This document shows positions 100-32,257 of a stretch of 32,284 bases of DNA, piece by piece. The DNA is from Chloroflexota bacterium (GTDB taxonomy: Bacteria; Chloroflexota; UBA6077; JACCZL01), in NCBI GenBank assembly GCA_020850535.1, contig JADZEM010000064.1:1-32284 (forward strand), written 5' to 3'. A program made the translations under genes and the position numbers. The first letter of the stretch is position 1; the number at the start of each line of letters is the position of its first letter. The notes beneath the pieces are model-generated. The model searched no databases and was not told where the DNA came from. It was given only the letters and a program-made list of their open reading frames with translations.

Positions 100-195
100 G
101 CGGCGGCACGACGACATCAACATACGATTGCACTGGTAGCAGCATCAGGGCGATTGCCTGTTCATTGGTGTCCCCGAAGCATCATGGAACGGTCG

Positions 196-327
196 GTCGG
201 GGGTTGAAACCCCCGCCTACAGTCATTCAGTCGCTGCGCGACGGCCGCCGGGAACGGACAGGGACTGGTGAGACTGGCGCGTCGCGCAGCGACTGCAGGA
301 GTGTAGGCGGGGCTTTCAAGCCCCGAC
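196..327. repeat. Composite inverted-repeat element, copy 2 (48-bp arms)
   Basis: Left arm 196-243 and right arm 280-327 are inverted complements with 5 mismatches in 48 positions, around a 36-nt centre. Each arm begins with its own small hairpin: GGGGG.../...CCCCC in the left arm and GGGGC.../...GCCCC in the right. The two arms therefore differ at paired positions that keep the small stem intact. The outer parts resemble MITE ends, but no transposase gene and no clear target duplication are visible. Confidence 0.8.
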
Positions 328-451
328 GCGGCGGCACGACGACATCAACATGCAATCGCCCTGGTTTCAGGGTAGGGGCGTGGGGCGAGAGAGCGTGGCC
401 GCCTCCTCTCTGACGCGCGCGGACGCGTCGGTGCACGCGCGCAACATCCTC

Positions 452-540
452 TGTCACCCTGAGCGCAGCGAAGGGCCTCACCCGCTGACCGTCAACGCTC
501 GCGTCAGCGGGTGAGGCCCTTCGCTGCGCTCAGGGTGACA
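452..540. repeat. Perfect 38-bp inverted repeat (dispersed palindrome family)
   Basis: Arms 452-489 and 503-540 are exact inverted complements, separated by a 13-nt loop. The ends are TGTCA...TGACA and the inner arm is CCTCACCCGCTGAC. The same inner arm and a loop starting CCGTCAA recur at 22502-22709 and 27985-28071. It lies 50 nt downstream of nrfH and could terminate its transcript, although there is no T-run. It may equally be a REP/MITE-like mobile palindrome. Confidence 0.9.
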
Positions 541-590
541 CGGGGAGCGTGGCCGCGGTCACACTCCCCCTACGACCCACGACCCTCGCC

Positions 591-4578: not shown

Positions 4579-5646
4579 GTGCCCACCATGCCCGCGAATC
4601 GCGCCCAGGGCCTGTGCGAAGCCGTCTTTCAGCGCCTGGGCTTCTCCGAGCGCGAGGTGCAGGATTGCACCTACGCCATCATGTTCGCCACCCTGCGCGG
4701 CCTGGACAGCCACGGCATCGTCTCGATCTTGCCGGGCGTCTCGTCCAGCGTCAAGCGCGGCCAGACCCAGCCGAACGCCGAGATCATCACGCTGCGCGAG
4801 TCGTCGATTGCGGCAGTCTACAAGGGGAACCGCGCGGCCGGGCCGGTCATCGCGGCCCACGCGATGCGCGCGGCGATGGGCCGTGCGAAGCAGTACGGCA
4901 TCGGCGCGGTGACGACGGTCCACTGCGCGCACTTCGGCGCGGCGTCGGCGTACGCGGCGATGGCCCTCTCGGAGGGGATGTTCGGGCTGGTGATGTGTAA
5001 CGCCGCAGCCCACGTCGCGCCGTTCGGCGGGGCCGGCAGCCTGCACGGCACCAACCCGATCGCCTATGCTGCGCCGGGCAAGGACGGGCCGCCCATCGTG
5101 CTGGACATCGCCACGAGCATGGTGGCCTCGGGTCAGTTGGCGAAGGCGGCGCGGCGCGGCCAGTCGATCCCGCTCGGGTGGGCCGTGGACGCCGACGGCA
5201 AGGCCACGACGGACCCCGCGGCTGGCCTGAAGGGCTCGCTGATGCCGTTCGGCGGCCACAAGGGGTACGGCATCGCCGTGCTGGTAGACCTGCTGACGGG
5301 CGCGCTGTCTGGCTCGACGCTCGGCCTGGACGTGCAGCAGAGCAACCCTGACCCGGAGGTTGGCGGGCAGGCCTTCTTCTTCCTGGCCATCGATCCGGAG
5401 TTCTTCAGCAGCCGGGAGGTCTTCGCGGCGCAGGTGGACAAGCTGACGCGCGACGCGAAGTCGATCAAGCCGGCCGAGGGCTTCAGCGAGGTGCTGCTGC
5501 CGGGCGAGCTGGAGTGGCGCGAGGAGCAGAAGCGGAAGGCGAGCGGCATCCCCTTCTACGACGGGGACTGGCAGGCGCTCTCGGCGAACCTGGAAGCGGC
5601 CGGGCTGCCGCGGGAGCTGATCGGGCAGTACGCGCCAGACGCCTGA
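4579..5646 (+). CDS. Ldh_2 family malate/L-lactate-type dehydrogenase
   Basis: This is a cytosolic NAD(P)-dependent 2-hydroxyacid oxidoreductase of the Ldh_2 family (YlbC/AllD, malate, ureidoglycolate and sulfolactate dehydrogenases), 355 residues and full length. Family landmarks in order are RGLDSHGI near the N-terminus, the His-containing CAHFGAASAY, LHGTNPIAYAAP, VLDIATSMVASGQ, and FGGHKGYGIAVLVDLL. Start is the GTG at 4579, preceded by AAGGAG at eight bases; an ATG at 4588 is possible. The reading frame is open further upstream to 4408 but has no ribosome site there. It converges with the LLM oxidoreductase across a strong hairpin. Given the neighbouring acid-sugar dehydratase and importer, a sugar-acid or hydroxyacid substrate is plausible but not shown. 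Confidence 0.93.
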   Translation: MPTMPANRAQGLCEAVFQRLGFSEREVQDCTYAIMFATLRGLDSHGIVSILPGVSSSVKRGQTQPNAEIITLRESSIAAVYKGNRAAGPVIAAHAMRAAMGRAKQYGIGAVTTVHCAHFGAASAYAAMALSEGMFGLVMCNAAAHVAPFGGAGSLHGTNPIAYAAPGKDGPPIVLDIATSMVASGQLAKAARRGQSIPLGWAVDADGKATTDPAAGLKGSLMPFGGHKGYGIAVLVDLLTGALSGSTLGLDVQQSNPDPEVGGQAFFFLAIDPEFFSSREVFAAQVDKLTRDAKSIKPAEGFSEVLLPGELEWREEQKRKASGIPFYDGDWQALSANLEAAGLPRELIGQYAPDA

Positions 5647-5648
5647 CA

Positions 5649-5739
5649 GCGCGGGTGGTGGGTCGAGGGTCGGGGATGGTGGGTCGTAGGAGCGAGGGTC
5701 GTCCCCCACGACCCTCGATCTACGGCCCACCACCCGCGC
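5649..5739. terminator. Bidirectional terminator hairpin between convergent genes
   Basis: Arms 5649-5662 and 5726-5739 are a perfect 14-bp match; 5663-5672 and 5709-5718 add 10 more base pairs after a 7-nt one-sided bulge. It fills the gap between the converging Ldh_2 and LLM genes. The arms are built from repeated GGGTCG-type words also seen at 567-588. There is no T-run, so Rho-independent activity is inferred from position and stem strength. Confidence 0.7.
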
Positions 5740-22501: not shown

Positions 22502-22709
22502 TGTCATGTTGAGCGAAGCGAAACACCTCACCCGCTGACCGTCAACGCTCGTGTCACTCGCTGACGCGATCTTGCCGGTCAGCGGGTGACATAGCCGCTT
22601 CAAACGATGCGGACTCCCAGTTGTCATCCTGAACGCAGTGAAGGACCTCACCCGCTGACCGTCAAGATCGCGTCAGCGGGTGAGGTGTTTCGCTGCGCTC
22701 AACATGACA
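22502..22709. repeat. Nested double copy of the dispersed palindrome
   Basis: Two half-related copies of the 452-540 element sit together. The left arm of the first (from 22502) pairs with the right arm of the second (ending 22709). They share the signature change AAACACCTC/GAGGTGTTT that neither shares with its own nearest partner. Between them, 22560-22588 and 22649-22677 are inverted copies with one mismatch in 29. The outer pairing continues beyond the element (GCAAGCC at 22491, GGCTTGC at 22717-22723). The whole can fold as one long stacked hairpin downstream of the permease gene ending at 22793. Confidence 0.85.
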
Positions 22710-27984: not shown

Positions 27985-28071
27985 TGTCACCTGAGCGAAG
28001 CGAAGGGCCTCACCCGCTGTCCGTCAACGGTTGCGTCAGCGGGTGAAGTCCTTCGCAAGCTCAGGACGACA
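27985..28071. repeat. Dispersed palindrome copy between divergent genes
   Basis: This is an imperfect copy of the 452-540 element (87 nt) with the same inner arm CCTCACCCGCTG and a loop starting CCGTCAACG. At its left edge GTGACA-CCCC-TGTCAC (27975-27990) makes a further small dyad. It lies in the 231-nt gap between the divergent sulfatase and GH13 genes, where both promoters must be. Confidence 0.85.
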
Positions 28072-32136: not shown

Positions 32137-32185
32137 CCCAAGCAGGTCCCGCCTCGCGATGGCCCAGGCCGCGCGCAGGCGGCGG

Positions 32186-32257
32186 GGAAGGCCCTCACCC
32201 CCCGGCCTGGGAAGGCCCTCACCCCCCGGCCTGGGGAGGCCCTCACCCCCCGGCCCC
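32186..32257. repeat. Three tandem 24-bp repeats
   Basis: Copies at 32186-32209, 32210-32233 and 32234-32257 share GGCCCTCACCCCCCGGCC. The length is a multiple of three, and in the permease frame (minus strand) each copy reads as GEGLPRPG. Confidence 0.9.

What the first reader, a model, noticed from the sequence alone, without database searches (positions are those of the whole stretch)
452..540. A dispersed palindrome family with conserved inner arm and loop
The copy here has perfect 38-bp arms. Four related arms or copies occur in 32 kb (452, 22502, 22622, 27985). The outer arm drifts, but the inner arm CCTCACCCGCTGAC and a loop beginning CCGTCAA are kept. A loop not needed for pairing should drift fastest, so its conservation hints at a binding site (protein, or a transposase acting on single-stranded hairpins as TnpA-REP proteins do).
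Basis: partly seen in the sequence, partly recalled or inferred. Interest (0 to 1): 0.6.

Follow-up and report, generated by a model that had tools for sequence, protein, structure and literature searches.

The report
Species-specific REP hairpin pairs with tandem inserts
This bacterium's chromosome carries about a hundred or more copies of a short hairpin-forming repeat whose outer arms belong to a widespread class of palindromic repeats but whose inner part exists only in this species and sometimes multiplies in tandem; it is a variant of a known kind of genomic repeat, and no transposase that could move it was found.

Summary
The palindrome family is real. At 452-540 two perfect 38-bp arms enclose a 13-nt loop, and related copies lie at 22502-22709 and 27985-28071. 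The sampled seventh of the 7.65-Mb genome (picked around copies) holds 103 complete elements. The inner motif CTCACCCGCTGACCGTCAA occurs 99 times in this genome, never in 40 relatives, and at chance level in 84,980 other species.

The inner arm and the CGTCAA loop start are conserved, as claimed, but the outer arm does not drift: it is about as conserved as they are. Only the middle of the loop and the outer flanks drift.

Each outer arm is a hairpin, TGTC-AT-NNN-GA-GCGNAGC-GA-N'N'N'-AT, found in 72 of 301 genomes of the phylum, with strong compensatory changes in its stem. Two such hairpins with tags outward form an HH REP dimer (REPIN-like). The inner arm plus loop is that dimer's species-specific spacer; in many copies it is a tandem array of 2-9 units of 26 bp, as in BOX elements.

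No Y1 or IS110 transposase is in the assembly, no Y1 gene tested lies beside the motif, and no target-site duplication was seen. The closest described kind, CGTC-tagged REPs, also lacks a dedicated transposase. New variant of a known kind; mobilising enzyme unknown.

The parts
452..540 (+). Complete HH REP dimer, single-unit form: outer arm 452-475, inner arm 476-489, loop 490-502, inner arm 503-516, outer arm 517-540
   Evidence: 89-94% identical to the closest other full-length genomic copies
452..475 (+). Left REP arm TGTC-ACCCTGAGCGCAGCGAAGGG: tag TGTC, 3-4 bp stem, GA/GA, GCGCAGC apex; both arms carry the paired changes T5C and A23G
476..516 (+). Species-specific spacer: inner arm CCTCACCCGCTGAC, loop CGTCAACGCTCGC, inner arm GTCAGCGGGTGAGG; one 26-bp unit
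517..540 (-). Right REP arm, reverse complement of the left arm
22502..22709 (+). Composite copy: left arm 22502-22539 (GTT/AAC stem variant) pairs 97% with right arm 22672-22709; a second left arm at 22622-22659 with spacer lies between them
27985..28071 (+). Degenerate copy; loop CGTCAACGGTTGC kept; right arm has the GC-TT-GC apex variant (CTTCGCAAGCTCAGG)
572..585 (-). Heptamer (ACGACCC)2 beside the element; the same heptamer arrays flank many genomic copies on either side, running towards the element

Best explanation
The family is a REPIN-like population of head-to-head REP dimers. Shown: each arm is a copy of a phylum-wide hairpin repeat with an outward TGTC tag, a short covarying stem, tandem GA/GA and an invariant GCGNAGC apex; two arms face each other around a spacer (inner arm plus loop) that is conserved within this species and replaced by another sequence in the sister genus; the spacer's 26-bp unit expands in tandem in nearly half of the complete elements; the elements lie between genes, most often between convergent genes. 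Inferred: the whole dimer is copied as one unit, which is why the 'loop' stays conserved; copying goes through a single-stranded hairpin handled by a host or mobile-element enzyme acting in trans that is not a Y1 or IS110 transposase and leaves no target-site duplication (or by an enzyme now lost); the spacer arrays grow by replication slippage, and small inversions inside them come from template switching at the hairpin.
For: Copies: 211 hits of the inner-arm 12-mer and 99 of the 19-mer in this genome; 95 HH pairs against 1 TT in the sampled DNA. Species-specific spacer: 0 in 40 relatives; 1 hit in 84,980 species where about 1.9 are expected by chance; the sister genus G002 has the same frame with the spacer CTCATGYTGAC... 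(14 hits, 0 in this genome), including one internal tandem duplication (L391). Arm as a hairpin class: 72 of 301 phylum genomes; stem triplet complementary in 138/149 viral-collection copies against a shuffled mean of 39, and in 42/54 copies from other phylum genomes against 9.7; also on cyanobacterial plasmids. Inter-arm match at the unpaired N: 43/44 in G131 (shuffled mean 34), 52/72 here (shuffled mean 44, maximum 52). Tandem 26-bp units, 2-9 per array in 43 of 90 elements, 11 adjacent identical pairs. Intergenic, convergent 40/104 against 52/290, p = 4e-5. No TSD in 100 elements, whereas a MITE in the same DNA shows them. Literature: HH dimers have conserved spacers and CGTC REPs lack a transposase (PMC3733652).
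Against: No empty site could be examined (no congeneric genome), so mobility is not shown. The DNA energy model gives the isolated arm hairpin no advantage over shuffles (z about 0). Inter-arm covariation in this genome is weak. Flanks just outside the tags also share low-level similarity (AAAGCATGCAA-like), so the true ends of the element are uncertain.
Confidence: 0.7

Rival explanations
1. A protein-binding array: CACCCGCYGACCGTCAAC, which contains the dyad TGAC-C-GTCA, is the recognition site of a DNA-binding protein, and the arrays and hairpins are dispersed binding platforms (nucleoid, supercoiling or gene control).
For: Within one 26-bp unit, most core positions (1-18) are 0.81-0.97 conserved even in internal array units that are not part of the terminal hairpin (exceptions: position 8, C or T, and position 17), while positions 19-21 are only 0.34-0.51; CGTCAA 0.85 against loop centre 0.55 pairwise.
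Against: The site exists in one species only; no protein identified; the sister genus keeps only CTCA...TGAC. Copying as a unit plus later drift confined to the loop centre could give a similar pattern.
Confidence: 0.2
2. A classic MITE moved by a DDE transposase that recognises the long inverted ends.
For: Long terminal inverted repeats, intergenic spread, no coding capacity.
Against: 0 of 100 elements have a 7-bp or longer direct repeat at the arm ends, while a 217-bp MITE in the same genome shows 10-11-bp repeats by the same kind of test; no autonomous copy bounded by the arms was recognised in about 1 Mb sampled around copies: only one outward-facing arm pair lies 0.33-4.5 kb apart, and what is between them was not examined.
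Confidence: 0.08
3. RNA-level element: bidirectional transcription terminator or mRNA-stabilising hairpin, spread and kept for that function.
For: Enrichment between convergent genes, odds ratio 2.9; very stable hairpin.
Against: No Rfam match; convergent enrichment also follows from tolerance of insertions; species-specific spacer and tandem arrays are not needed for termination.
Confidence: 0.15

Closest known systems
CGTC-tagged REP superfamily (Di Nocera et al. 2013, PMC3733652; includes Neisseria dRS3 and Rickettsia RPE-4/RPE-6)
   Same: End tag CGTC/TGTC, stem starting with AT pairs, HH dimers predominant, conserved spacers in HH dimers, intergenic and convergent bias, no dedicated transposase
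   Different: Stem is 5 bp then GA/GA then GC with a GNA triloop, not 8-9 bp with a 4-5-nt loop; tail CTC, not CCA; Chloroflexi not among the five phyla listed there for CGTC repeats (that this genome is a Chloroflexi member is my inference from the size pattern of its relatives); spacer grows into 26-bp tandem arrays
REPINs with RAYT (Bertels and Rainey 2011, PMC3116915)
   Same: Inverted REP doublet plus spacer behaving as the replicating unit; single-strand hairpin; over 100 copies
   Different: No RAYT/Y1 gene in the genome; no GTAG tag; spacer about as conserved as the arms
BOX elements of Streptococcus pneumoniae (PMC3049150)
   Same: Modular: fixed ends around a variable number of tandem inner modules; hairpin-forming; dispersed
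   Different: Unrelated architecture of ends (boxA/boxC are not one inverted arm); BOX shows target duplications, this family does not

Membership tests
CGTC-tagged REP superfamily | Unpaired terminal tag CGTC, often TGTC or CCTC | tested here: met
   Per position T .93, G .98, T .93, C .93 in 189 arms
CGTC-tagged REP superfamily | First two stem pairs complementary AT | tested here: inconclusive
   Fixed in the search pattern used across genomes; in this genome the closing A faces C in about 80% of copies, the second T-A pair is kept
CGTC-tagged REP superfamily | 8-9 bp stem with a 4-5-nt loop | tested here: not met
   5-bp stem, GA/GA mismatch, 2 bp, 3-nt apex
CGTC-tagged REP superfamily | CCA tail | tested here: not met
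   Tail is CTC(A) in this genome, mostly CTC/CTG elsewhere
CGTC-tagged REP superfamily | HH dimers predominant with conserved spacers | tested here: met
   95 HH, 1 TT; spacer conserved
CGTC-tagged REP superfamily | No associated transposase gene | tested here: met
   No Y1 or IS110 in the genome; 30 Y1 loci elsewhere lack the motif
RAYT-REPIN system | RAYT (Y1 transposase) in the genome, flanked by the REP | tested here: not met
   PF01797 absent in this genome and the sister genus
RAYT-REPIN system | Inverted REP doublet as the repeated unit | tested here: met
   103 complete elements, 95 HH pairs
MITE (DDE-mobilised) | Target-site duplication at the ends | tested here: not met
   0/100 at the arm ends, other offsets at or below shuffled level; another MITE in the same DNA shows them
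BOX element | Variable number of tandem inner modules between fixed ends | tested here: met
   Arrays of 2-9 units of about 26 bp in 43 of 90 elements
BOX element | Sequence homology to boxA/boxB/boxC | not tested
   No alignment made; only the architecture was compared
Mobile element of any kind | Demonstrated gain or excision at orthologous sites | not testable with these tools
   No congeneric genome held

The most novel reading that the evidence does not exclude
The arm defines a large, apparently unnamed superfamily of single-strand DNA hairpins, TGTCAT-NNN-GA-GCGNAGC-GA-N'N'N'-AT, found widely in this phylum, on cyanobacterial plasmids and in environmental contigs. Its invariant apex is the extraordinarily stable d(GCGNAGC) DNA mini-hairpin closed by sheared GA pairs, and it is copied as HH dimers with host-specific spacers by an unknown enzyme unrelated to Y1 transposases.
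Probability: 0.25. Interest if true: 0.65.

Novelty: new variant of a known kind. Interest (0 to 1): 0.45.

Why it matters
It links a species-specific repeat to a phylum-wide hairpin class with strong compensatory evidence, and gives a concrete setting for the open question of how REP dimers without a RAYT spread: same frame, different spacer in each lineage, no target duplication, no Y1 gene. The tandem growth of the spacer shows how a REP dimer can turn into a BOX-like modular element.

Tried and rejected
Y1 transposase (PF01797) in the own genome and 43 others: absent in ten other motif-rich genomes, and where present, none of the 30 loci held has the motif beside it. IS110 (PF01548): absent. 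Autonomous element bounded by the arms: none recognised in about 1 Mb; the single wide-spaced outward pair (L117) was not read through. TSDs: none. General homogenisation of the two arms within each element, which the perfect window copy suggested: weak or absent across 72 elements (z 0.4-3 in the arm, about 0 in the flanks). Rfam: nothing in the window. Literature search for the arm sequence: no paper on bacterial repeats contains it in the open library, although subscription papers are not held. The nearest-neighbour DNA model does not show special stability of the isolated arm hairpin, so that part rests on covariation and on published knowledge of d(GCGAAGC).

Full report
OBSERVATION. At 452-540 two perfect 38-bp arms flank a 13-nt loop. 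The window also holds a composite copy at 22502-22709, where the left arm at 22502 pairs 97% with the right arm at 22672-22709 and a second left arm sits inside, and a decayed copy at 27985-28071. The window is contig 64 of a 7.65-Mb, 96% complete assembly. The inner-arm 12-mer occurs 211 times there against 2 for the reversed pattern, the 89-bp element has 116 BLAST matches (both strands of one palindrome counted), and the inner motif CTCACCCGCTGACCGTCAA occurs 99 times. It is absent from 40 relatives, and its single hit in 84,980 species is what chance predicts (about 1.9).

CONSERVATION. I took 93 stretches of the genome around copies (983 kb including the window) and extracted 103 complete elements. 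The loop start and inner arm are indeed kept: over 88 terminal hairpins with a 13-nt loop, pairwise identity is 0.90-0.94 for the inner arms, 0.85 for CGTCAA, 0.93 for the closing CGC, but 0.55 for the loop centre. The outer arm does not drift: 0.86 pairwise and 0.80-1.00 per position, with the caveat that arms were collected by resemblance. Sequence beyond the tag is 0.34 identical, so that and the loop centre give the neutral level. Hence the arm, inner arm and loop start are conserved to a similar degree.

ANATOMY. (a) Arm: TGTC - AT - three bases - GA GCGNAGC GA - complementary three bases - A(T/C). Across the phylum, 72 of 301 genomes carry TCATNNNGAGCGNAGCGANNNAY, with 2 hits in all for the reversed control. 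Though the two NNN were free to differ, they are fully complementary in 138 of 149 copies from the viral-contig collection (39 expected) and 42 of 54 from other phylum genomes (10 expected). The complementary stems listed there always have a pyrimidine before GA, as sheared GA pairs prefer, and the apex is the known extra-stable d(GCGNAGC) DNA mini-hairpin; both statements rest on my knowledge of DNA structure, not on a computation here (the energy model is neutral). Apex variants GC-TT-GC and GC-CT-GC and longer GC/GA ladders occur. (b) Dimer: arms pair with tags outward, 95 HH to 1 TT. (c) Spacer: the 26-bp unit CACCCGCTGACCGTCAACGCTCGCGT, once in 47 elements and 2-9 times in 43 others, with 11 identical neighbours and higher identity within than between arrays (0.80 against 0.74). 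In some arrays CA-CCCGC-TG is flipped to CA-GCGGG-TG. (d) Outside: AAAGCATGCAA-like segments and (GGGTCGT)n heptamers running towards the element on either side.

RELATIVES. The sister genus G002 has the same frame with spacer CTCATGYTGAC...CATGAG, 14 hits and none in our genome, one with an internal tandem duplication (L391). G131 has 51 dimers with a less palindromic spacer, and the unpaired apex base N matches between the two arms in 43 of 44 analysed (34 expected). Each lineage thus keeps the frame and has its own spacer. Five cyanobacterial plasmid records carry the arm too.

CONTEXT. With a codon-usage gene finder the complete elements are nearly all intergenic (two overlap called genes near an end; the other in-gene calls are single weak unit matches), and 40 of 104 element-bearing gaps lie between convergent genes against 52 of 290 element-free gaps (odds ratio 2.9, p = 4e-5). 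In the window, 452-540 follows a MITE copy and precedes the end of a NapC/NirT-type cytochrome gene; 22502-22709 lies next to an ABC permease gene; 27985-28071 lies between a sulfatase and an alpha-amylase gene.

MECHANISM. No Y1 transposase and no IS110 transposase is in the assembly; 30 Y1 loci from other genomes never have the motif in the flanks held. 0 of 100 elements have direct repeats at the arm ends, while a 217-bp MITE in the same stretches shows 10-11-bp duplications. The best-supported account is a REPIN-like HH REP dimer copied as a unit through a hairpin intermediate by an unidentified enzyme, with later slippage in the spacer. Shown: structure, copy number, covariation, species-specificity, absence of TSD and Y1. 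Inferred: copying as a unit, single-strand intermediate, slippage. The loop conservation that prompted the finding is what the literature reports for HH dimers, whose spacers are conserved as a rule (PMC3733652), so it does not by itself require a binding protein; the drift confined to the loop centre nevertheless leaves a binding site possible (0.2).

KNOWN OR NEW. The nearest described kind is the CGTC-tagged REP superfamily, which shares the tag (TGTC variant), AT-first stem, HH dimers and lack of a dedicated transposase, but the stem/loop dimensions and the tail do not fit, so I call it a variant, not a member. REPINs with RAYT fail on the transposase; MITEs fail on TSD; BOX elements share only the modular plan. 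I found no paper in the open library with this arm sequence.

Noticed in passing
window 146-363 (and partial copy 1-152): Copies of an unrelated 217-bp MITE with ends CAGGGCGATTGCA...TGCAATCGCCCTG; about 28 copies in the sampled DNA, about ten with 9-11-bp target duplications. It has inserted into copies of the palindrome family (L164 5066-5282, and probably L103 6412-6628).
   Followed up: partly
window 5649-5739: G-rich heptamer-like array (GGGTCGT-type) as an inverted repeat with a 21-nt centre between two convergent genes; similar heptamer arrays flank many palindrome copies and could form G-quadruplexes.
   Followed up: no
window 32185-32256: Three near-identical 24-bp tandem copies GGGAAGGCCCTCACCCCCCGGCCT at the contig end.
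   Followed up: no
L107 4915-5107, L186 14388-14632: Within arrays of the 26-bp unit, some units have the 9-mer CACCCGCTG replaced by its reverse complement CAGCGGGTG, i.e. repeated micro-inversions.
   Followed up: no
L101 about 4980-5022, L111 1-149, L382-L394: Tandem short copies of the half-arm TGTCATCCTGAGC(+6-7 nt) next to complete elements, in this genome and in the sister genus.
   Followed up: no
contig ends of G000 (e.g. C6:91, C48:52, C71:92, C124:79, C198:84): Many contigs end in or next to a copy of the family, so the repeat probably breaks the assembly and the true copy number is higher.
   Followed up: no
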